The notes under the pieces were generated by a model. That model saw nothing but the letters and a program-made list of their open reading frames with translations. It did no database searches and was not told the origin of the DNA. This document shows positions 19,153-43,577 of a DNA stretch of 44,080 nt, in pieces. Source of the DNA: Paracamarosporium sp. OC-R06-R3 (Eukaryota; Ascomycota; Dothideomycetes; Pleosporales; Didymosphaeriaceae). The stretch covers positions 1 through 44,080 of the forward strand of contig JACVRA010000467.1 of NCBI GenBank assembly GCA_019828545.1. The letters run 5' to 3'. How positions within the stretch are numbered: position 1 is the stretch's first letter; every line of letters begins with the position of its first letter. The translations under genes and the position numbers were made by a program.

Positions 19153-21261
19153 TCAAAGCCTCACATCGCGCCCCTCGATCCTTTCCAGCTGCTTGCTCGT
19201 AAACGTCTCGTAAGTCTTCGTCTCAGGATCCAACCAAAACAACGCATCGCCCTGCTCCTCCACCGCTCGCGCATCAATGCCGTCTTTCTGGAATAGGTGC
19301 TTCTGCTGCTTATTGGTGCCCGTTGTATGCATCTGCTTCGTCAAGCGTATCCACAGCGGGACCGCGAAGCCCGGAAGATTCTTCCGTGCGTGCTCTGCAA
19401 TCGATCTAAGCGTCGATGCGGAAGGTAAAGTACCAGATTTCAAAATGATTGCAGCGCAGCCGGCGCGCCCGTCGTGATGCGGCACTTGCACGCCGTATAC
19501 ATTCGCTTCCTCGATCTCAGGATGCTTTCCCAGCGCATCTGCGACTTCTGCCGTTGAGACGTTCTCCGCTTTCCACCGGAACGTATCGCCGATGCGGTCG
19601 ATGAAGTACCACCGGCCTTCTTTGTCCCGCTTGATGAGGTCGCCTGAGCGGAAGTACGCGTCTCCTTTGCTTTTCACGTCGCGCAGGATCTTGGAAGACG
19701 TGGCTTTCGTGTTGCCCCAGTAGCCTTGGAACTTCTGGGATATGTTTGCTGCGTCGAGCTTGTAGAGGAACTCGCCGGACTCGTCCCAGTTGCAGACCTG
19801 GCAGAGACCGGTCTTGGGATCGCGCAGCGGTTCGGGGGGCGACGAGTCGGGATCCATGCGGATGACTGTAAGGGAAGAGCCCACAAGGAGATTACTTAGT
19901 GTGCCATTGCGTGCGAAAGCTCCTGCGCTGAAGCTGTTCGTCGACTTGTTGAATAATCCGCTTGGGGCTTCCGTTGCGCTGTAGAACTCGTAGATGGTCT
20001 TGATGCCGAAGCGGTCTTTGAAAGCGTCCCATACATCTGGCCGTAGCCCGTTGCCGAACGCAGCACGCACGTGGTGTTGTTTGTCGAGAGGAGAGGCCGG
20101 CGCGGAGTAGAGATAGCGGCAGGTCTCACCCACATACTGTATGATTGTAGCTTTGCTAGCTCTGACCTCGGGCCAAAAGGTCTTGTGGCTGAAGCGCTGT
20201 GATATACATATTGCGGCTCCAGCGCGCAATATGGGCCCGACCCCGAGTACTGAAGCAGCGCTGTGATAGAGAGGCATAGATGTGTAAAATATATCTGAAG
20301 GTGTGAGCCCCATCCAGCCTTGAGTAAATTTAGCGCCAAGCAAGGCTTTGCTCCAGGACATGATGGCAGCTTTGGGAAGACCTGTTGTTCCCGATGTGTA
20401 AATCAACATCGCCATGTCGCTTCCTTGTTGATTGCCACGTTCGGAGTCAGGAACACGGGTCGGTTGAAGCGAAAGGATATGACTCTCGAGACGCTTGTCG
20501 AAGAAGACAATCTCGAGCCTCTGGCGTTGCGGTTCTGAGGTGGTATCCTGAGCTTGAGGTTGTGAAGCAGTCCTACTAGCTTGTTTCTGGACCGATTTTG
20601 GAATTTGGCTCGGATCGCTATTGAAACCATATACCGCCTGATTATCTTGCTGTCCCGAGGTAGGAGGAACCGTTGCAAAACCGTGCTCTGCCATCACGCT
20701 CTCGCTGAACTTCTCCCTCCCATTCTTATCCACAAGCACTAGCCTCGCTGTACTGGTCCTGATGGTATGAAGTAACGGAGCGCCCGTAAGGTTGTAATTG
20801 ATGAAGGCTGGTTTCGCACCAATACTCCATAAACCGAACCACACCCATATGAACACCTCGCTGTTCACAAAGTCCATCGCAACGACTTCGTCCTTCTGTA
20901 CCCCTTTGCTCTTCAGCCATGTTCCATACTTAAGAACAATCTCATAGGCCTCCGCATAGCTCCACTTCTCTCCGGACGGTCCGGATATAATCCATGGACG
21001 ATGGCGATTCGGAGACTTGGCATGTGCTTCAAGCGTGTAGAATATATTGATGTTGTCGTTTCGCTCGGCCAGAAGAAGTTGAATTCGTGCAGAAATTAGA
21101 GAGGAAAGGAGCTCGTAATCGTAGGAAAGACCGTAGCGTGCGTTCAGGTAGGCGAGTCCTGCGCCGGCTGCGGCTGCGGGGAGGGCGAGTCCTGCGTAAC
21201 GGTGGGTTAGCTATGAGACGAATGCACCATGCGTCGCTGTCGGGAATAGCTTGCCTTGCAT
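19153..21261 (-). CDS. FATP-type very-long-chain acyl-CoA synthetase
   Basis: AMP-forming synthetase of the FATP/Fat1 branch: it activates long or very long fatty acids (or related acids) to CoA thioesters, at the ER, lipid body or peroxisome. Exon 2 (19153-21191) carries nearly the whole protein. The proposed exon 1 is only 7 nt (21255-21261, ATGCAAG), joined by a 63-nt intron with a GC donor (AAG|GCAAGC), branch GCTAAC and acceptor CGCAG. This gives 681 aa. Landmarks: a hydrophobic N-terminus (LALPAAAAGAGLAYL), ATP-binding LIYTSGTTGLPKA (about 266-278), IYEFYSATE, and the FATP/VLACS signature GDTFRWKAENVST (537-549). Residues 190-228 are a polar Gln/Ser insertion. The C-terminus RDVRL is at best a weak PTS1. 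Fat1 versus a Fat2/CefD1-like peroxisomal paralogue cannot be settled here. Confidence 0.9.
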
Positions 21262-22348: not shown

Positions 22349-23230
22349 ATGGCGAACGTGAAGAAAACCTATTTCCTCTGTCCGTCCTTTGACTATCCTC
22401 CACCACCAGCAGGCCCTATACAGCTTGGCAGCATCCTCTCCGGTCCATTCTCGTTGGACAGGCCTTTGACATCAAAAGACACGGTGGTCCAAGTCCCTCC
22501 AGAATCAACCTTCACAACTAGGAAAACCGAATGGAAGTCAACGTTAAGCAAGGGAAAATCTGGCTCCGTCGGATTGTTCGCCAAATTCCTTCAGCTGGTG
22601 GTTGGCATCGGTGTGGAAGCAAATGTAGAATGGGAGAACGCGGACCTGAGCGAAGTCAACATCGAGAAGTTGGAGACAACTTACTTCAATCCTATGGATA
22701 CGGAGGGGTATCTGGAGAGCGCACTGAAGGCGCCTAACGTGAAGCGATTTATCGAGAAGAGCAGGATTCGTAAACCTGTGTATATGGTGACCGGATTGAA
22801 AATCGCTTGTGGTGGGAGGTATAACACGAGCAAGGCAGCAGCACAAGGGTTGATGTTTGGTCTTAGTTTAGACGGCACGGCGCTGTCTACTCCCATAAAG
22901 GTCGGTCCTCAGACCGAAAGACGCACGGAGAAGGCAGAGGACACAAGTTGGAAAGCAAGCGACGATTTTGTCTTCGCCTATCGCCTGAGTAAGATCAATC
23001 TAAAGAAGAAGACGGGGGAGGTCAAAGAGACTGAGTACATCAAAGGGGCATTGTATGAACATGGTCTCGACGGACACAGGCAAGGGAACGTGGGCTATGA
23101 GCTTGACAATGTCGCAGGAGATGAGTTCGTAGAACATGACGAGCTCAAGGACAGTCTTCTGGAAGTCACAGATGAGGATGAGGAGTACAGCTGCATTGTT
23201 CCTCGACAGGCCACCCGAAGTCATGGGTGA
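22349..23230 (+). CDS. gasdermin-like pore-forming cell-death protein (putative)
   Basis: A single-exon protein of 293 aa from the ATG at 22349; the longer frame upstream has no ATG. It shows the gasdermin N-domain pattern: an N-terminal strand/helix part, SGKSGSVGLFAKFLQ-like amphipathic segment, GIGVEANVEW, a helical middle (GYLESALKAPNVKRFIEKS), then the paired strands PVYMVTGLKIACGG and DDFVFAYRLSKINL that correspond to the YVVTEVL-type and AFRV-type strands of gasdermins. From about residue 236 a 58-residue tail, very acidic (DEFVEHDELKD, TDEDEEY), looks like a removable inhibitory segment. Size, tail and tail-to-tail pairing with a subtilisin gene match het-Q1/het-Q2 of Podospora, where the protease cleaves the C-terminus to release a membrane-permeabilising form. 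The family call rests on pattern and context, not on an alignment. Confidence 0.62.
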   Translation: MANVKKTYFLCPSFDYPPPPAGPIQLGSILSGPFSLDRPLTSKDTVVQVPPESTFTTRKTEWKSTLSKGKSGSVGLFAKFLQLVVGIGVEANVEWENADLSEVNIEKLETTYFNPMDTEGYLESALKAPNVKRFIEKSRIRKPVYMVTGLKIACGGRYNTSKAAAQGLMFGLSLDGTALSTPIKVGPQTERRTEKAEDTSWKASDDFVFAYRLSKINLKKKTGEVKETEYIKGALYEHGLDGHRQGNVGYELDNVAGDEFVEHDELKDSLLEVTDEDEEYSCIVPRQATRSHG

Positions 23231-23261
23231 GCGCAGTATGCATTTCCTGTGGTATCGTGAC

Positions 23262-23267
23262 AATAAA
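23262..23267 (+). terminator. AATAAA poly(A) signal of the gasdermin-like gene
   Basis: A canonical AATAAA 32 nt after the stop codon. It lies within the 70-bp gap before the convergent protease gene, so the two 3' UTRs almost certainly overlap. Confidence 0.5.
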
Positions 23268-23300
23268 AGAAGGACGCAGTATATACAGTAAAGTAGACAA

Positions 23301-26228
23301 TCACCCTAGAGCTTTTTTAATGCTAGCGCTGGCTGACACGATGCCATATTCGAAAAGTCCCCAAGGGGCAAGGTAATCATATTCATCCCTTCGCGCAACC
23401 ATAAGTCGAAAGATAGCGCGCATGCCTCCACAAGTTTTTAATTGTCGTAAGATTTCGTGGTCGTCTGGCATCTTTTGTCTGGTCCACTCTAGGATGAAAG
23501 CTGCAATTGCAGCAGCGACCGGAGTCGCAAAGGAGGTTCCGCTTTTCCTTTTCCTCGTGTCGTTCAACCACGCTGATTCCACCGCTACGCCAACAATGCT
23601 AAAGTTTTCGCAATGCGGCAAGGGCGATGGGTTGAAAAGCGATTTGTTCCCGCTGCCGTCCGTGGAGTGAATACATATCACTCGTTCATGTCTCGCTGGG
23701 TAAGCACGTTCGTAATTCCCTCCGTGGTTAGCCGCCGCTGCAAAAACAAGACAGCCAGCCTGATCGATGGCAATATCAATGGCAGGTATCCGCTTAGGAA
23801 AACCAAAGGACATTGTGATAATATCTACTTTCCATTGATGTGCAGCCCAAGTAATTGCCTTGCATCGGTCAGCATAGAACACACAACTTCGCGGGGAGAT
23901 GCGTACTTCTGCAACGCAATCGGTGTCGATAGATTTCCCGTCTTTCGTGACTTTTGCAACGTAGATATCTGCCTCTGCAGCAACGTCCAGTATAATGCCT
24001 GCGACGTGTGTTCCGTGGCCGTGCTCATCGCCGCTGCCCCAGTCTTCGACACCGTTCTTTCCATCTACCCAACTTCTGATATCCTTCACACTCTCTTCAC
24101 ATGCTACTATATCATTATGCCGAAGGTCGATGCCAGTGTCTAGAATCGCTATCTTGATTCGTGGCCCACTCACGTTGTCAATTTGATCTGTGATGCGCCT
24201 AAGGCTCTCAAACCAGTTGTCAGTTTGTGCTGCTGCTGCAGAGTTTACGTCTTCGGAGTAATGGTCATCGAAAAGGCTGAAACCGGGGCCACGATTAGAG
24301 AAAATTTGGTCATCATCTTGTATTGGTGATTTCGACTGCTTTCTGTGCAGCGGAGATCTGGATCTTCTGTGGAGGAACCCCCCGCTGGCGATTGTAGTGT
24401 CTATGTGCTTCGTGAAATCGCCTACACCAGAAATGGTATCCGTATCATGAATCTGTAACACAGGCACGCTCTGGCCTGGAGGGTTTTCCACGAGATCTAC
24501 CACTTGTTGTTGTAAAGCTTTGTGGTCAGCTGGGGTGGACAATGAACCAACTTCGCCCTTAAGGGTTAGGCGATTTGACGCAATGTCATTATCCATTTGT
24601 ATCCGCTCACCGTACCCTGCCACATCCATCTCTCGGGCCTCCGTGTCGAGATGTTCGATATCGACCGTATCTTGGAAGCCTGCCTCTAGTTCGATCTCCA
24701 AAGGCAAGACGATCTCCTGATAGATTTGATGTCGAGCCTCTTCTATATCGTCGAGCTCTTCCAGGTCGTTCGCAAAGTTGTCATCTAAGCATTTCTCTAT
24801 TGCTTTCCGATATCGAAAGTGCAGGTTCGGTTTGTGTCTTTTATAAGCTTCGTCGGCAGCAAAGTAATCGGCATTGTGTTCGATTTCCGCGAATTTATTG
24901 TTTGTGTACGAGTGAATCGACTGTTTCAGACTGAGCTCGAGAAGCATGATTCCCAGGTTCAGAATGTTTGGATTTGCATGGAGCTGGTTGAAGGCGTCAT
25001 CATCGTCAGAGTCTTCTTCTCCGGAGGCATGCCGAGAGACCAAGAATGGTCGCAAAGGGAAAATGTTGCCTTGTCGAATGAAGACAATATTTTCAAGCTT
25101 CCAATCTTCCAGCCATGAGCTTTTGTATAGATGGAGAAGGGTGTGACCAAGTATGACAGCTAGAATCAATTTCGTTTCTTCGGTTATAACAGAATGCGTG
25201 CCACGAGAAAGTGATCTTAACGATACTGCCGATATGAGATCTTCTGGCGCGTACACTGACCGACTTTTGTTTTCAATATACATCGAATCTCCCTCGGCGA
25301 TAAAGTGTAGTCTAATGCGCGATTGCTGAGCATTCTGCAGAGGATCACAGAGATGCATAACTGGTCGGCGCTTCTTTTGAGATGGTTTGGTTGTCGCCAA
25401 AGCGTCTAAATCGCAGTCTGCCCACTTCACTTTTCGCGTCTTGGCCAGCTTCTCCGGCGGGCTTGATTATCAGAGATATCATTCATAAATAAAGCTTCAA
25501 GATATAACTCACTCTGTCATTGAAATCTTCAATTTCACTTCCTGTCCACTCGAAATGTCCCCATTCAGGCAGACAATAGTATCCATCTCGAGGATAACTG
25601 AGCTTCGATGCGTAAGCAGCGCTAGGCGCGTTAAGAATCTACTGCAGTTGACGCATTTCTCTGCAGTTGCCAAGAAAGCCTTGAGTAGCTCGTTGTTAAC
25701 TCTCCATATATCGTAATTTGGGCCCTTCCTCTTCGATTTCCTCGTAGGAAGGTTGTCCTCGCCTCCTAAATCCACATGCTGGTCAAGCTCATCATTACAA
25801 GATAGGATAGCTTCTAGAACGGAGTGAGCACTGTATTCCGTAAGATCCAGTAAATTGGCCCAGCTCTCCGTCTGTTCTTGGTTCTTTTCTTGTACAAAGC
25901 GATCCCGCAGCGCGCGTAGACCGCCATAAGGCTCGTCATCAGATATTTCGCTTTCAGGGAGGGTTTCGTTTAGCTTATCGAGCACATTGACGATGGCAGC
26001 AAGCGCGAGCGATGTATTTCTTTGATTCTTCAGGTAAATGAGACTCTCGTGAAGCGCAAGTGATTCGGTGTCGATGTAAAGAAGATCGTTGCACAATGCT
26101 CTCTCAGCCTTCTTATCCACCTGGCGCCTGCGAGCTTTCACAACCTGTCTGAGCGCGCCGTCGGGCGCCAGTAACTTTAAGAGCAACAAGAGCTTCTCTC
26201 GCGCATCGTAGTTGCGTGCGACCGCCAT
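23301..26228 (-). CDS. DUF7580-subtilisin (S8) protease, HET-Q2-like
   Basis: Large cytosolic serine protease of the type encoded next to fungal gasdermins. Exons: 25513-26228, 23907-25461 and 23301-23858. The second intron (23859-23906, 48 nt) is in frame and stop-free, and was recognised because its removal restores VAEAITWA. The result is 942 aa. Residues 1 to about 430 are a helical fungal domain followed by DUF7580 features (LLHLYKSSWLEDWKLENIVF, PFLVSRH, NILNLGIMLLEL). A linker of about 240 residues precedes the S8 domain. It has a complete triad: Asp680 (AILDTGID), His721 (EHGHGTHVAG) and Ser866 (SGTSFATPVAAA), plus oxyanion Asn801 (AAANHGG). There is no signal peptide, so it should act inside the cell. 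It is convergent with the gasdermin-like gene and divergent from the NLR-like gene. The likely substrate is the gasdermin-like neighbour (inference). Confidence 0.85.
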
Positions 26229-26563
26229 AAGTCAGATGAACGAGATTAGCTACTGAGTTGGCACTAGACGGAAGGCATGTTTGTGGGGGTTGTCTCCTCA
26301 CCACATCATTTAGTAATCCCCAGCTGGAACCTCTCAATATCTTGGGCGCGCCCACAATATATATTCGAGCTCTTATTGGTGGCATGTCTCTTACACGCAT
26401 ACATGTCGCGTTAGTGGGACGCAGGTCGCCACGTTCGGCTTACGCCCAGTTCCAGGCGAAAACCGTCTCATCACACATACACTGATATCCGCAACTTAAT
26501 CCCGGATTGTCATAGTGGGTGTCCTAGGAGCAAGTGACTTTCACGACACCTTCACGCGTAGCG
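26229..26563. promoter_or_regulatory. 335-bp divergent promoter, protease / NLR-like gene
   Basis: The only space between the two divergent start codons. It holds a TATATAT stretch at about 26357-26364 and an ATTGG (CCAAT on the minus strand, 26375-26379), placed about 150 bp upstream of the protease start. A shared promoter would co-express protease and sensor-like gene. Confidence 0.5.
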
Positions 26564-29500
26564 ATGTCCCTAGCAGTGGATATGTCTGACACTTCTTCAA
26601 CGGAAGTCACAATCGCTGGACAGGCGCGCCGCTGCCACGATCTGTACGTCAAATGTCTCTATCTTGCAAGCGATTCACCGAATGACGAGTTTAAAAATAC
26701 CTCACAAGAAGATCAAGCTTCTGAAAGCCGGTTCGATGGGCGTCCTACGAATCCTAGCAAAGGGCCGTCTCTCTCCAATATCTTGAAAAATGAAGCAGGG
26801 CGATTCAACATCTGGACAGCAAATATTGGCGTGTTCGCCGAACTCAAGCTTTCTATGGACTACCGCTTACGAGACGCACCTGACATCCATACACTGGTCG
26901 TTGAATTGTTAGATGCCCTTGTGGGGAATCTGTGTCACCTTGAAAAGCTTCTCGCCAGGGAAGCGAATATTGGAGATGAAAGCTCTTTCTATGCAAATGC
27001 CGATGCTTCTGTTGTAAAACAGAACACCCGATCTATAGATGGGCTGGAAGACGTCGGGCATGCTGTCACTGCCGTGAACAATAATGTAAGCCGTCTACAT
27101 CGGTTGTCCAACGCAATACACCGGGCAGGAGCCGACACTCGAAATATTCGAGCCACAAAATTCGTGTTGAGAGACGAAGAAGGAAACGATATCGACGCAG
27201 CTTATGAGACTTTTGCGCTTGGGCAATGTCAGAGACTATTCCCGACTGGAGACGGCAATCTGCTTCAACGCCTCGCCACGACTATGCTTAGTCGGCGCAA
27301 ACGACTTTCGTACGGACGCGAGCGACAAGTGAAGCTTGCCATCAATACACAGCGTCCCGAGAAGAAGCTTATAACAAAGGTGCACAAAACCAAAACTCCA
27401 ACACCCTCAGAAATTCAAGTGCAGCCTATCCGCCAACAAACCGACAAATCGGTGACTGCGTCAAACACACATTCTACGCGAACAACAGACACGGCTGCGA
27501 CTCCTCTACCCATTCAGAAAATGCAAGCTCCGTCTGTCATATCTCGATTATCGTCTGCGCAAAGTGTTAGGCTAGGCGACGAAACAAAGCGATTATTCCC
27601 ACTACCTCCTATCGCAAAAGATTCCTCGGACGTTGTATGCCCTTATTGTAGCTTGGTTCTACCAACGCAACGCCTGAAGGACGGCAAATGGTGGCGGTGA
27701 GTGAGGTCTTCCTCGACAATAGCTAGAATAACATGGGCTAACCGTGTAGACATCATGTCCTGCATGATCTCAAACCATACGTTTGTCTAGAAGAGGATTG
27801 CCAAAATGTGGAAACCTTGTTCGGTGACGAAAAGTCCTGGATCAGACACATTCGCACGGAACATCGCCAGCAATGGCGATGTTCCATCAGAAAGCATCGG
27901 ACCGCTGGCCCCACAACATTTAATACAAAGCAAGACTTTGAGCATCACATGAAAGAGGAGCACGCAAAAGCATTTCCAGAACACCAAATATCATCATTGT
28001 CTGAAGCAAATGCGCGACCAACTGGTCCAACCTTCACAGTCTGTCCATTGTGTGCGCCGGAAAAGACGTCAAACTTAGAGACAGGGCAAGGCGAGGCACC
28101 TAGTCCCATGGAAAAACATATCAGTGACGACTTGCTACATCTAGCACTTCTTTCCCTGCCTTGGGTTGATACAGGAGATGGAGAGGGGCTCAGCGATAGG
28201 AACGTGAGATCCGAAACACGGGAGACCATAAAGGACTTCCAGGATAAGGATCCCTGGCAAGAACAGGACTTTCCTCCTTCAGGCTCCTTTCCGCCTCTTG
28301 ATGACTCCTGTGACTTTATTTCCGAAACTTTGTCGGCGAACACGGACAGACAACAAGAGTGGGGCGGGATACTAGGCTTACCTACGTCTTCTACGGTCGA
28401 CTATGACCCGGTTTTACGACCGTTCTTAATCCCTTCGGATTGGTTCAAAGGTACATTGGATCGAACGACATGAATGTTAGTTACATCACTAACTTGCGAA
28501 GGATATATTGACTCACGTCCCTACCCTGAAGAGGTTTTCGGGTTCCCATCTCCCTCTCCAAGGGATTGTTCCTGGTTGCTACGACTTCCTCCATACGCAT
28601 GGTGGAAACAGAGAAATAGAGGTGTTCTCTTGCTATATGGAGGCATGGGTGTTGGGAAATCCGTACTTTTGGAATATGCTTTGCATCTAGCTCGAAAGCA
28701 GTCCAGCCACTCAAGGTCACTTGTGTTGCCATTGCGCTGTGGAAGTATAGCTACGCGGCAGCTTCAGCTTCTGGACCTCTTCGTACAACTACAATACGAA
28801 CTCACTACTAATATGGGGGAGTTTCCTCGCGTGTCGGATCTGATCAAAAACTCCCGTTCTTCGAGCGCCCCTAGAGAGCTGGCTAGAGACCTTCTTCTTA
28901 TCGGACTGAGTAGTTGCGACATCCAACTTTTTATCGATTTAAACGATCAGCAACGGACCTTAGGAATAGACTTGCTATCTTGGTTGCGCGACATCTGCCT
29001 CGATTTCGGGCCAAAAGCACGTATGCGAATCATGATAGCTTCTCGCTTTCATGGCCTTGTCCAAGAAAGTGGGTTTGCCTGGAAGAGAATTCTAGTGCAT
29101 GCTTGTACAGTAGAAGGAATAAAGGATCTCGTGGAAGATTCAAAAGCCTTCTCACTCTCCCAAGAGACGAAGCGCGATATTATCTCCCATTCATGGGGCA
29201 ATATTTTGTGGGCAAACATCGCCTTGACACGACCGCTGAGGCACGTCCAAAATGTCATGGACAATCATTTCCGATCGTCCCATGTCGAGTTTAGAGATAA
29301 AAAGAGTCTGAGCTGGCGAGCTTTTGTCTACGCATGGGTGTTATATGCGCCTGCAGCTCTGACAGTCCAACAATTCGCTGCGATATTCGTCCTGGGAGAG
29401 TACATATACCACGGTGTCAAAACTTCTCTGGCTCCCTTGACGATCGAATACCAGATCGAATACATCGTAGAATCATTGACACGAGGTCTGGTTCATCTTG

Positions 29501-30679
29501 TCCGACGAGACAATGATATGGTGTTCGAATTCGTACACCCTAGCGCAGAATTTTACATTCGACAGACTGGATGCGTTGATAACGATACAGAGCGACGATA
29601 TCTAATGTTCCCCTTGCGCTGGCTTGAGTATGCCAATTTATCACCGAATTCCGCCATGTTGGAACATACTTTCACCCAGTATGTCTGTCAGTATTTTCCA
29701 TATTTCATCTCAAATATTGCAAATATGCCCGATTCGAGCCTGTTCCACGAGATAGATTGGGATGGGAGCGTACTCCACTGGTTACAGGCGCGGAAAACCC
29801 AGCACGACACATACATCGACCTACAATCCGACAGCAGTACTAAGCTTGTTCATATTGCTGCAAGTTGTGGTTTAGTTCCCATCATATCGAACCTCAACGA
29901 CCTATCCAAAGGCGCTTCTCGTAATACTAGACATCATTTGGATATAACGTGTCAAGATTCGTTAGGTCGGACACCGCTTGACCTCGCAAAGCAGGTGAAG
30001 GATGATGACATGGTTGATCTAGTGAACGAAGCCATTAAAGAGAAGGTGAAGGTGGAGTCACAGGCTCAAATCCGAGTCGACCAGAATTCACCTCCTATCA
30101 TTCGTGCTTTCACTATAGAGTCGGAACCGAACTCAACGGCTGCGAAACATGAAGCGGCTTCAACGTATTCTGAAACGACGGCTGGCAAGTTGTTCCCAAA
30201 ATCAGGGTTGATTGTAATCATGCCAGGTGAGTTATCTCATCAACAAGCTCAATGCATTCTAACTTGGAAGGAAAGCCTTGGTATCAATATGCTGTCATTG
30301 CTCTACCTGGAATACCATTAACGGTGAGCAAGAAAGCCGTTGCTACACATGCTCTCAACCACATTGCGACTCCTGTAGAATGATGCTTTGGCAGAACTAC
30401 GAGGTAGACTCCTCGTGGACGTGCTGCAAATGTTTGATGGTAAATTCAAGGAAGGACCACCCTAAGATGTGCAGTACCTGTGATCATGAGCGTTGCAAAG
30501 AGACTTGCATATCTCAACCGGGTATTACCATAGACAGCCGGGTGGCATCAACAGGCATCAGCAAACATTACAGATCCGTAGACAACGAAAACAGCAGTAT
30601 CGACCGCGCAATATACCGCATGATGGATATAGGTTTTACGCCTAAGCAGGCTAGACAGGCGTTTAGACGAACAGTGTAA
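26564..30679 (+). CDS. NLR-like protein: AcuF zinc finger, NACHT-like NTPase, ankyrin, zinc ribbons, UBA-like
   Basis: Four exons (26564-27696, 27750-28450, 28502-30226, 30276-30679) with introns of 49-53 nt, three having CTAAC branch points, encode 1320 aa. The pieces look like separate ORFs only when introns are ignored. Order: an N-terminal helical fungal domain (GRFNIWTANIGV, LSMDYRLRDAPDI, about 80-150); a disordered linker; an AcuF-type C2H2 block starting CPYCSLVL (about 359), with HHVLHDLKPYVC, IRHIRTEH and FTVCPLC; an NTPase with Walker A GGMGVGKS (658-665), Walker B-like IQLFIDLND and sensor-like MIASRF; a winged-helix region (YAPAALTVQQFAAIF, FVHPSAEFYI); two weak ankyrin repeats (about 1057-1122, DSLGRTPLDLAKQ); two Cys-rich zinc ribbons (CCHC...CYTC...CDSC; CCKC...CSTC); and a C-terminal UBA-like helix set (MMDIGFTPKQARQAFRR). 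This is an intracellular sensor architecture; the ligand is unknown. Confidence 0.85.
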
Positions 30680-39935: not shown

Positions 39936-42900
39936 ATGGACAGAGAAGAGATCAAACCGTGAGCGATCCGACCATGCGGGACACGAACGTGTAACATGCT
40001 CATCATTGCACAGGGCTCGGGTCCATTTCCCTGGCGATGAGGAAACAGGTCGCGTGGGCCGCGAGCGCGAAGCGTATCGCCATGACAGGCGATTGTCGCG
40101 TCAATCTAGCGTAGGCAGTCTCTCGATCCACAGTGCAGGCGGAGGCACGAGGACTGTACAACCAGAGACTGCTCTACCCATCACGTACCGTACTCTGTGA
40201 GTTGTTCATTTCATACATGCACGCTTACGCGTTTGCTTGTACGTTGCCCTTTCAGGGGCGACCTACTCTGCCATGGCCTTGGCCGGGTACATTGCCTGGA
40301 CACACTACTGACGGAACGTAGCTCTATCGAACTCGATGAAGCCCAGAGCAAGAAGCAGGAAAGCGTAAAGCGTGCCAAAGAGCGCGCTGGCGTTGGTGAG
40401 TCGCTGCCCTTCGTGTGTACTCTTGCCCCTAACAACCCACAGACCTTGCCGGCTTGGAATGGCACACCATCTCCACTGAAGAACTCCTCCGCCGCCTGTC
40501 AGTCACCCTCGGTCAAGGTCTTTCCCCAGACCAAGTCACGCGTCGCCTCAACGAACATGGCCACAACAAGATGACACCTCCTCCTTCTGGTCTCTTTGGT
40601 AAGATCATGGGCTACTTCTTCGGTGGCTTCGGATCGATCCTCCTCGTTGCTAGTATACTGGTGTTTATCGCGTGGAAACCGCTTGGTAACCCGCCTGCGA
40701 AGGCTAACCTTGCGCTTGCAATTGTCTTGCTCGTTGTGTTCTTCTTCCAAGCTGCCTTCAATGCGTGGCAGGTACGTAGATCAGAAGACAACGATGCGTC
40801 GATTACAAAGGAAGGATGCTCATTTATACCATTAGGATTGGAGCTCAGCACGAGTGATGGCTTCCATTGGAAGTATGTTGCCTGACCAATGTATCGTCGT
40901 TCGCAATGGGTCTCAAGCTAGTATATCAGCAACTGACCTGGTCCCCGGAGACATCGTGATCATCAAGCAGGGTAACAAGCTCCCTGCAGATGTTCGCTTT
41001 GTCGAAGTGTCCAGCGACGCCATGTTCGATCGCGCAATTCTTACAGGTATGTTCAGCTCGTTTGCAGTTCTCTGCATCTACCCAATCTAACACGTGTTAG
41101 GTGAATCTGAGCCCTGCCCTGCGACCATCGAAGCGACCGAAGACAACTACCTCGAGACACACAACATCGGTATGCAAGGTACTCACTGTATCTCCGGAGG
41201 TTGCATTGGTATTTGCGTGGCTACGGGTGACAACACAATCTTCGGACGCATCGCGAAGCTTACAAGTGAACCCAAGACCGGCATGACCCCGTTGCAAAGG
41301 GAGATTCTGCGATTTGTGCTGATCATCACGGTCTTCATCACCTGCGTGGTCATCCTCATTGTCATTCTCTGGGCTGCATGGCTTCGTAAAGACTACCCTG
41401 AGTGGATCGATGTTCCCCTCCTCATTGTAGATTGTGTCTCCTGCGCGGTGGCCTTCATCCCTGAGGGCTTGCCTATCGCATTGACGACTAGCTTGACGAT
41501 TGTTGCGAATATCATGAGGAAGAACAAGATTCTTTGCAAGTCGCTCAAGACAGTTGAGACTCTGGGTGCTGTGTCAGTCATCTGCTCAGACAAGACTGGT
41601 ACTCTGACGAAGGTACGTCATCGCTTATTACAACAACTCTTTCGAGAAGACATGACTAAAGTTTCATAGAACTCTATGGTAGTTACAGACATCTACGCAG
41701 GAGGCGAAGAATACACACCCGAGGCCGCTCGAGATTTGATGGCAATCATTCGGTCAGAGAACAACATCGCAGCACTTAGCAAGAAGCGGGAAGACGTAAT
41801 GGAGGACCTCCGCTTGATGTCTGGTCTATGCAATGCTGGCGAGTTTGATGCTGCCACTATGCACCTGCCTATCTACGATCGTAAGATCAACGGTGATGCG
41901 ACTGACCAAGCTATCTTGCGCCTATCCGAAAGCCTTGGTTCTGTCGCCGAGCTTCGTCAGAGTTGGAGAAAGGTTTTTGAGATCGCATTCAACAGCAAGA
42001 ACAAGTTCATGGTGCGGTTGATGTCGCCGGCGTCCCAGGATGCATCTAACAAGCAGACTACGCTCATGATAAAGGGAGCTCCGGACATTATTCTGCCTCG
42101 CTGCAACTCGGTTGTTGGGGATCATGGCGAGATTCTACCTTTGACCGAGGCCCAGACCCAGCGCATTGAACAGACCAAGGACGACTGGTCACGACAAGGA
42201 AAACGTGTGATCCTCCTTGCTCGCAAGCAAACAGTAGCTCCCTTTTCCAACAACCCAGAGAAGGAGGTCCTCGTCGCAGCTCGTCAAGGCTTGACTTTCG
42301 TGGGTCTGCTCGGCATCGTGGATCCACCCCGTGATGAGATCCCTTCTGTCGTCAACATCCTCCGAAACGCATCTATCCGCATCTTCATGGTCACCGGCGA
42401 CTTTAAGCTTACGGCTCAAGCAATTGCCGAGGAATGCGGCATTATCTCCAACTCAGCGATGGTCGACGACATCACCGCCTTGGACAGAGGAGTCAAAGAG
42501 GGATTTTCGCGCCGAGCCATCGTCCTGAGTGGCCCCGAACTGATGACACTCAACGAGAACCAATGGAACCAGCTATGCCAGTACGAAGAGATTGTATTTG
42601 CCAGAACCACGCCCGAGCAGAAGCTTCGTATTGTCAAGGAGTTCCAAGCCCGGGACAACATCGTCGGTATGACAGGCGATGGTGTCAATGACGCTCCTTC
42701 GCTGAAAGCTGCGGACATCGGCATCGCGATGGGTAGCGGTAGTGACATTGCGATCGAGGCCGCAGACATGGTGCTTCTCGACTCGTTTGCCGCCATTGTT
42801 GCCGCCGTGGAATACGGTCGTCTCGTGTATGACAACCTGAAGAAGACCATCTTGTATCTGCTACCTGCGGGTTCCTTCAGTGAACTTTGGCCTGTTGTCA

Positions 42901-43577
42901 CGAACGTTGCGTTTGGCATTCCGCAGATCTTGTCTTCCTTCCTCATGATCGTCATCTGTTGTTTCACGGATTGTGCGGCTGCCATTACGCTCGCTTACGA
43001 GAAGCCTGAGTCGGACCTGATGCTGCGTGCTCCTCGGAGCCCCAAGAAAGACCGTCTCGTCAACACGAGGCTTATCTTCCATGCGTACTTTGTTGTAGGA
43101 TTGCTCGAGTGCTTCCTGTCTTTCACCATGGCCTTTTGGTACATGGAGCGCAAGGGCATTCCTTTCACAGCGATGTGGCTCAAGTTCGGTAACTACGATT
43201 CGCAATACGACCCAGACTATATAATCCAGACGACAAACGAAGCGTCGAGCATCTACTTTGTCACGCTTGTAGTCATGCAACTATTCAATCTACTAGCGAC
43301 TCGCACGCGGCGTCTCAGCATCTTCCAACAGCCTCCCGTCTTCAACAAGAACACCCAGAACTGGCTCTTGTTCCCAGCCATGGTCTTCGCCATCGTAGTC
43401 GTCTTCATCTTCTGCTACCCTCCTTCAGTCCAGGAAGCCATCGATACCACTACGATCCCAGTAGAATATTGGTTCTTCCCTGTAGCCTTCGGAATCGGTC
43501 TGCTCATTCTCGATGAGGCACGCAAATGGGCGATACGCACGTGGCCGCATGGTCTGCTTGCCAAGATCGCTTGGTGA
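39936..43577 (+). CDS. P2C-type (Na+/K+-ATPase-like) cation pump
   Basis: Fungal homologue of the Na+/K+- and H+/K+-ATPase alpha subunit, expected to move Na+/K+ or H+/K+ across the plasma membrane using ATP. Seven exons (39936-39958, 40014-40196, 40322-40395, 40443-40771, 40836-41046, 41101-41612, 41670-43577) give 1079 aa. Motifs: an N-terminal Ser/Arg-rich cytosolic tail (RRLSRQSSVGSLSIHS); actuator-domain LVPGDIV and LTGESEP; M4 FIPEGLPIAL (PEGLP 394-398; animal pumps have PEGLL); phosphorylation site SDKTGTLTK with Asp437; KGAPD (579-583); VDPPR; TGDGVNDAPSLK (779-785); and a complete C-terminal set of membrane helices (about six). Everything needed for catalysis is present. No beta-subunit gene is seen nearby, as usual in fungi. 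Splicing between exons 5 and 6 forms the conserved LTGES. Confidence 0.95.

What the first reader, a model, noticed from the sequence alone, without database searches (positions are those of the whole stretch)
22349..30679. Candidate three-gene cell-death module: gasdermin-like + subtilisin + NLR-like
Seen: a 293-aa gasdermin-patterned protein with an acidic tail ends 70 bp from a converging DUF7580-S8 protease gene with intact triad. That protease shares a 335-bp promoter with a 1320-aa NLR-like gene. Known: in Podospora het-Q1 (gasdermin) is activated by cleavage by het-Q2 (S8 protease), and such pairs cluster in fungal genomes. Inference: here the protease and a separate NTPase/zinc-finger sensor are co-regulated, so sensor, activator and executor sit in one locus. 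A physically linked NLR-like gene with AcuF fingers, zinc ribbons and a UBA-like end is, as far as I know, not described as part of a gasdermin system.
Basis: partly seen in the sequence, partly recalled or inferred. Interest (0 to 1): 0.88.

Follow-up and report, generated by a model that had tools for sequence, protein, structure and literature searches.

The report
Fungal gasdermin locus with separate sensor
This fungal locus holds a pore-forming death protein next to the protease that probably unleashes it, plus a third, sensor-like gene whose relatives sit beside the same kind of partner elsewhere in the genome, which suggests a fungal self-destruct system built from three separate parts.

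Summary

A plus B is a known kind, the fungal gasdermin-protease cluster. New, as far as I could search, is gene C. Its zinc-finger family lies within 5 kb of a DUF7580 gene at 7 of 10 loci (6 of 9 without the window); an eighth pair was seen later. Seven of eight pairs are head-to-head. Three loci carry gasdermin, DUF7580-S8 and zinc-finger gene together. The zinc-finger partners share a front half but differ behind: N-NACHT, ANK, TPR, macro, kinase, receiver-like, PHD/RRM; several tails resemble other proteins of the same fungus.

Best reading: a three-protein, pyroptosis-like module in which C senses, B cleaves and A kills. Anatomy and linkage are shown; signalling from C to B and cleavage of A are inferred. 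Linkage of C was testable in one genome only.

The parts
22349..23230 (+). Gene A: fungal gasdermin, 293 aa, one exon
23057..23227 (+). Acidic C-terminal tail of A (residues 237-293; 16 D/E vs 4 K/R), candidate inhibitory segment
   Evidence: Composition; lies beyond the aligned RCD-1/HET-Q1 core; boundary placed by me just after the conserved G233-A234
23231..23299 (.). 69-bp gap between the convergent stops of A and B
23300..26228 (-). Gene B: DUF7580-subtilase, 958 aa, exons 26228-25513 and 25461-23300
24684..25424 (-). DUF7580 domain of B (residues 252-498), kinase-like fold
23469..24161 (-). Peptidase S8 domain of B (residues 673-903); triad codons begin at 24140 (D), 24017 (H), 23534 (S)
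26229..26563 (.). 335-bp shared intergenic region between B and C
26564..30679 (+). Gene C: zinc-finger/N-NACHT protein, 1320 aa, 4 exons
27632..28236 (+). C2H2 zinc-finger block of C (from residue 357; spans intron 27697-27749), shared with the zinc-finger genes at the other DUF7580 loci
28567..29046 (+). N-NACHT (NPHP3_N) domain of C with Walker A GGMGVGKS
   Evidence: Pfam 1.1e-8; motif position
30290..30508 (+). Two Cys-rich zinc-ribbon-like units near the end of C
   Evidence: sequence by eye; similar units in P0035
30593..30676 (+). UBA-like C-terminus of C, shorter than the matching end of another protein of this genome (C334)

Best explanation
A three-protein, pyroptosis-like cell-death module. 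C is a cytosolic sensor: shared zinc-finger front half, P-loop NTPase, variable tail. It lies across one intergenic region from B, whose degenerate kinase-like DUF7580 domain docks to C's front half and holds the attached subtilase inactive. On recognition C releases or clusters B; B cuts the acidic tail off gasdermin A, which forms pores and kills the cell. Shown: gene identities, intact triad, gasdermin fold, kinase-like fold of DUF7580, tight linkage, and recurrence of the trio at three loci and of the zinc-finger/DUF7580 pair at eight. Inferred: that C binds B, that C senses anything, that B cleaves A, that A makes pores.
For: A is a gasdermin. B has a complete triad and its DUF7580 is kinase-like in fold. 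Six of 6 gasdermin loci found have an S8 match within 0.6 kb. Equal longest-contig lengths and sources suggest that A-like and B-like genes also share a contig in a 4128-bp metagenome contig, Aulographum hederae and Biscogniauxia sp. FL1348. Trio at 3 loci: C229, C104, C21. Zinc-finger family within 5 kb of DUF7580 at 7 of 10 loci, 6 of 9 without the window, binomial P 7e-16 and 1.5e-13 under random placement; an eighth pair, at C335, was seen in a locus fetched for its DUF7580. Head-to-head at 7 of 8. Tails of the zinc-finger partners differ: ANK 2.8e-74, TPR 1.8e-16, macro 3.7e-18, kinase 1.3e-15, N-NACHT. None of 31 B-family members scanned shows a sensor-repeat family, while zinc-finger partners at C104 and C21 do.
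Against: Linkage of C to A and B was seen in one genome only; no collection of fungal genomes was available for synteny. The only homologue of C found at E 1e-3 (P0035, Dendryphion nanum) has no A or B relative in my lists, though those searches have limited reach. C67 has a zinc-finger/TPR gene with no DUF7580 in 9.9 kb, C64 and C169 have none in the 8 and 7 kb fetched, and a weak match at C119 was not looked into. At C104 the gasdermin lies between the C-type and B-type genes, so that pair shares no intergenic region. Matches between the zinc-finger genes are individually weak (N-terminal E 5e-6 to 9e-4). Distance correlation between partners is weak (r 0.47, permutation P 0.036, 7 pairs, one DUF7580 partial). 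The pairs are paralogous, so loci are not independent trials. The gasdermin model has mean pLDDT 53. No expression, binding or cleavage data.
Confidence: 0.6

Rival explanations
1. A and B are an ordinary two-gene gasdermin-protease unit; C is a zinc-finger regulator of transcription that binds the shared intergenic region and sets expression of B (and of DUF7580 genes elsewhere), not a sensor acting on the protein.
For: C2H2 fingers often bind DNA (recalled); 7 of 8 pairs share an intergenic region; one partner (C335) also carries Zn2Cys6 and RRM domains and a weak PHD match; two-gene clusters are the published norm.
Against: N-NACHT, ANK, TPR, macro and kinase tails are unusual for transcription factors and usual for immune sensors (recalled); at C104 no intergenic region is shared with B.
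Confidence: 0.2
2. C guards B negatively: it is a built-in inhibitor of the protease, and loss or disturbance of C (by a parasite or an incompatible partner after cell fusion) sets B free.
For: Adjacent, divergently transcribed partners suit balanced dosage (inference); B carries no recognised sensor repeats of its own.
Against: The P-loop motif of C is intact, which suits active switching rather than passive inhibition; no direct data.
Confidence: 0.12
3. The linkage is a by-product: zinc-finger and DUF7580 genes were duplicated together from one ancestral pair and stay adjacent without working together.
For: The members are paralogues; partner distances correlate weakly.
Against: At 68-84% sequence difference and with a different order (C104) and different tails, passive retention at eight loci is unlikely; three trios are kept.
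Confidence: 0.06

Closest known systems
het-Q1/het-Q2 of Podospora anserina and the fungal gasdermin-Q2L two-gene clusters (Clave 2022, not held; seen only through passages of PMC12881547, PMC10197012, PMC10989679)
   Same: Gasdermin with a C-terminal tail beside an S8 protease gene; profile match to HET-Q1
   Different: The protease here carries kinase-like DUF7580 rather than recognised sensor repeats, and a separate zinc-finger/N-NACHT gene lies beside it
Fungal NLRs with an S8 or CHAT protease as N-terminal effector, adjacent to gasdermin genes (PMC9815663 and PMC10197012 passages)
   Same: NOD-like module, S8 protease and gasdermin at one locus
   Different: NOD and protease are on two polypeptides here
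Mammalian inflammasome NLR - caspase - gasdermin D (PMC10197012 and PMC12881547 passages: the NLR controls a separate caspase)
   Same: Sensor, protease and pore protein as three separate proteins, in that logical order
   Different: Protease family and sensor domains differ, and the genes are linked here
Plant head-to-head sensor-helper NLR pairs with integrated decoys (as described in PMC12258605 passages)
   Same: Head-to-head gene pair, one partner with exchangeable extra domains
   Different: Partner is a DUF7580 protein, not an NLR; decoy role untested
Zinc-finger NLRs of Sordariales (PMC12258605 passages)
   Same: Zinc fingers combined with a NOD
   Different: There mostly C-terminal (52 of 57) and not reported with gasdermin or protease; the main text holds 0 occurrences of either word

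Membership tests
Fungal gasdermin (fGSDM) | Sequence homology to RCD-1/HET-Q1 pore domain | tested here: met
   Profile of A plus 27 homologues: RCD-1 1.6e-24, HET-Q1 3.7e-17
Fungal gasdermin (fGSDM) | Gasdermin fold | tested here: met
Fungal gasdermin (fGSDM) | Short C-terminal inhibitory segment removed by protease | tested here: inconclusive
   57-residue acidic tail is present; inhibition and cleavage not tested
Fungal gasdermin (fGSDM) | Membrane pore formation and killing | not testable with these tools
   needs experiment
Q2L S8 protease | S8 domain with catalytic triad | tested here: met
   Pfam 3.9e-23; D and H in 61 of 61, S in 59 of 61 with 2 gapped
Q2L S8 protease | Gene within 10 kb of a gasdermin gene | tested here: met
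   69 bp
Q2L S8 protease | Cleaves the neighbouring gasdermin | not testable with these tools
   needs experiment
NLR | Central NACHT or NB-ARC type NTPase | tested here: met
   NPHP3_N 35.9 bits vs cut-off 24.8; the NACHT model itself 14.8 vs 26.7, below cut-off; Walker A GGMGVGKS
NLR | C-terminal sensor repeats (WD40, ANK, TPR) | tested here: inconclusive
   No repeat family in C by Pfam at E 1; one ANK-like stretch by eye; relatives at C104 and C21 have ANK and TPR but no NACHT hit in the pieces scanned
NLR | Known N-terminal effector/signalling domain | tested here: not met
   No Pfam effector domain in front of the NACHT at E 1; hence NLR-like, not an NLR
Protein-kinase-like (DUF7580) | Kinase fold | tested here: met
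Protein-kinase-like (DUF7580) | Catalytic motifs of an active kinase | tested here: inconclusive
   Canonical HRD and DFG not seen by eye in the alignment; no formal test
Sensor-helper receptor pair with integrated decoys | Head-to-head genes | tested here: met
   7 of 8 pairs
Sensor-helper receptor pair with integrated decoys | Both partners are NLRs | tested here: not met
   No NOD family found in B or in the DUF7580 pieces of the other loci scanned; so works-like at most, not a member

The most novel reading that the evidence does not exclude
The zinc-finger/DUF7580 pair is a previously undescribed fungal paired-receptor system: one partner has a constant zinc-finger front half and an exchangeable tail that mimics the fungus's own regulatory proteins (integrated-decoy-like baits), the other is a kinase-like helper to which killing modules are fitted, including subtilase plus gasdermin at three loci. 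The window is the version with an N-NACHT switch and a shortened UBA-like bait.
Probability: 0.35. Interest if true: 0.92.

Novelty: new variant of a known kind. Interest (0 to 1): 0.78.

Why it matters
Published fungal gasdermin systems are described as two-gene units in which the protease-bearing protein is itself the sensor, and what controls that protein is named as work still to be done (PMC12881547 passage; PMC10197012 passage). A separate sensor-like gene, linked to the protease at three loci of one genome and to the same kinase-like domain at eight, gives concrete candidates for that missing step and makes it testable in yeast or Podospora. If the tails are baits, fungi would have reached a plant-like sensor-helper layout by another route; a Sordariales survey found head-to-head NLR pairs rare (13 among 225 two-NLR clusters; PMC12258605 passage).

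Tried and rejected
Chance neighbour: rejected for the pair (with the caveat that paralogous loci are not independent). C as a plain neighbour of a two-gene unit: not excluded, kept as rival. Relatives in viral contigs: none for the B or A alignments. DUF7580 in print: 0 papers in the held library. A zinc-finger or NLR third gene with fungal gasdermin: nothing of the kind in the titles and abstract openings listed (14 listed; 2; 4; 6; 10 of 22; 10 of 83; 10 of 64), nor in the passages I saw of PMC12881547, PMC10197012, PMC10989679, PMC12258605, PMC9815663 and PMC11138114; no paper was read whole, and Clave 2022 is not held, so its supplement could list such neighbours. A search for AcuF zinc-finger papers (10 of 1,163 listed) gave no lead. 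The six-frame genome searches cross no introns, so counts are lower bounds. NCBIfam gave nothing for A or P0035. C81, C49 and C209 have gasdermin + S8 but no DUF7580 or zinc-finger match in the 7.9-9.9 kb fetched, so the trio is one subtype only.
Full report
What is there. The window is contig C229 of a 43-Mb fungal assembly. Among the nearest named protein relatives are Lindgomyces, Polyplosphaeria, Paraconiothyrium and Massariosphaeria, which I recall as Pleosporales, so this is probably a Dothideomycete. A and B converge with 69 bp between stops; B and C diverge with 335 bp between starts.

Gene C has a front half with C2H2 fingers (by eye; no Pfam call), an N-NACHT domain (NPHP3_N 1.1e-8), two Cys-rich ribbons and a UBA-like end. 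The end matches the C-terminus of another protein of the genome (20 of 39 identities; genome-level E 9.6e-6) and stops short of that protein's last stretch. The exon with the N-NACHT matched nothing else in the genome. One homologue was found in the protein database, P0035 of Dendryphion nanum, 34% over 84%; it keeps Cys-rich ribbons but ends in different sequence.

The trio recurs. Searching the whole genome with A gave five gasdermin loci, window included; a profile run on fetched loci and a second genome search gave a sixth at C21. All six have an S8 match within 0.6 kb. Three of the six (C229, C104, C21) have DUF7580 fused to or directly before that S8, and the same three have a zinc-finger gene of the C family within 5 kb. 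The other three (C81, C49, C209) have neither in the stretches fetched.

The zinc-finger/DUF7580 pair is the wider unit. DUF7580 occurs at 14 loci (a lower bound). Genome-wide searches with pieces of C and with one relative gave ten zinc-finger loci; seven lie within 5 kb of DUF7580, or 6 of 9 without the window. I did not count C306, which matches only a tail. Under random placement the binomial probability is 7e-16 or 1.5e-13, but the loci are paralogues, so this overstates independence. An eighth pair, C335, was noticed only because that DUF7580 locus had been fetched, so 8 of 14 DUF7580 loci have such a neighbour; the other 6 show none in the 9-9.9 kb fetched. C67, C64 and C169 have a zinc-finger match but no DUF7580 in the stretch fetched, and a weak match at C119 was not looked into. 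Seven of the eight pairs are head-to-head; at C104 the gasdermin lies between. Five of the eight pairs have neither S8 nor gasdermin in the stretch fetched.

The zinc-finger partners swap their tails. C229: N-NACHT. C104: ankyrin repeats, 2.8e-74; C21: TPR, 1.8e-16; C60: a macro domain, 3.7e-18, in the next open frame downstream. C172: protein kinase, 1.3e-15. C46: a stretch 30% identical to a 1755-aa frame on C306 in which a receiver domain is found (Response_reg 6.8e-14); C46 itself gives no Pfam receiver hit. C335: RRM 6.5e-8, Zn2Cys6 8.4e-7 and a sub-threshold PHD 9e-4 in one open frame, with segments 71%, 60% and 60% identical to three different loci of the genome. C234: a segment 39% and 41% identical to two other loci. 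Exon joins were not proven for C60 and C172. That these tails are baits is my inference; how often other genes of this genome are such mosaics was not tested.

Other species. Among homologues of A and B, three pairs report identical longest-contig lengths and sources (P0003/P0037, 4128; Aulographum hederae, 504716; Biscogniauxia sp. FL1348, 663550), so A and B are probably linked there; Fusarium oligoseptatum has both on contigs of different length. Linkage of C could not be tested outside this genome; viral contigs gave nothing. Dendryphion nanum has the C homologue but neither A nor B in my lists.

How it probably works. In published two-gene systems the protease often carries the sensor repeats itself (PMC10197012, PMC10989679 passages). 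Here those repeats, or the NOD, sit on the zinc-finger protein, and the protease carries a kinase-like domain instead. The simplest model is sensor C, protease B, pore A, with DUF7580 as the coupling point, because that domain is what the eight partners of zinc-finger genes share, with or without S8. Rivals are transcriptional control by C and inhibition by C.

Compared with what is known. A and B are new members of a known kind. I found no description of the third gene in the listings (lists capped in the last three) or in the passages seen, within an open-access library that lacks Clave 2022. I therefore call the whole a new variant of a known kind. C fails one defining feature of an NLR (no known N-terminal effector domain), so it is NLR-like; the pair fails one feature of plant sensor-helper pairs (both NLRs), so the likeness is functional only.

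Noticed in passing
G000 C335, locus L016:8173-9900 (+): A zinc-finger partner gene whose single open frame strings together a weak PHD match, Zn2Cys6 and RRM domains, segments of which are 60-71% identical to three different loci of the same genome.
   Followed up: partly
G000 C21:137163-138693 and 149041-149478: Three extra copies of the zinc-finger N-terminal region, two of them with stops in the matched frame, flank the C21 trio.
   Followed up: no
L018:4892-6811 (-), C213: HeLo (4.3e-30) plus DUF7580 with a weak Pkinase match: a protein laid out like the necroptosis executioner MLKL (MLKL layout as in PMC12881547 passages).
   Followed up: no
Gasdermin family tails, alignment A1: 13 of 28 aligned gasdermins (not the window's own, which has a single Cys there) have a CxC motif in the last 25 residues, mostly after an acidic run; possible lipidation or metal site.
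   Followed up: no
L022:3988-5180 (+), C50: An S8 gene close to the gasdermin-linked type (7.9e-48) with no gasdermin detected in 9.9 kb.
   Followed up: no
window 19153-21210 (-) and 41670-43577 (+): Nearby unrelated genes: an AMP-binding enzyme and part of a cation-transporting ATPase.
   Followed up: no
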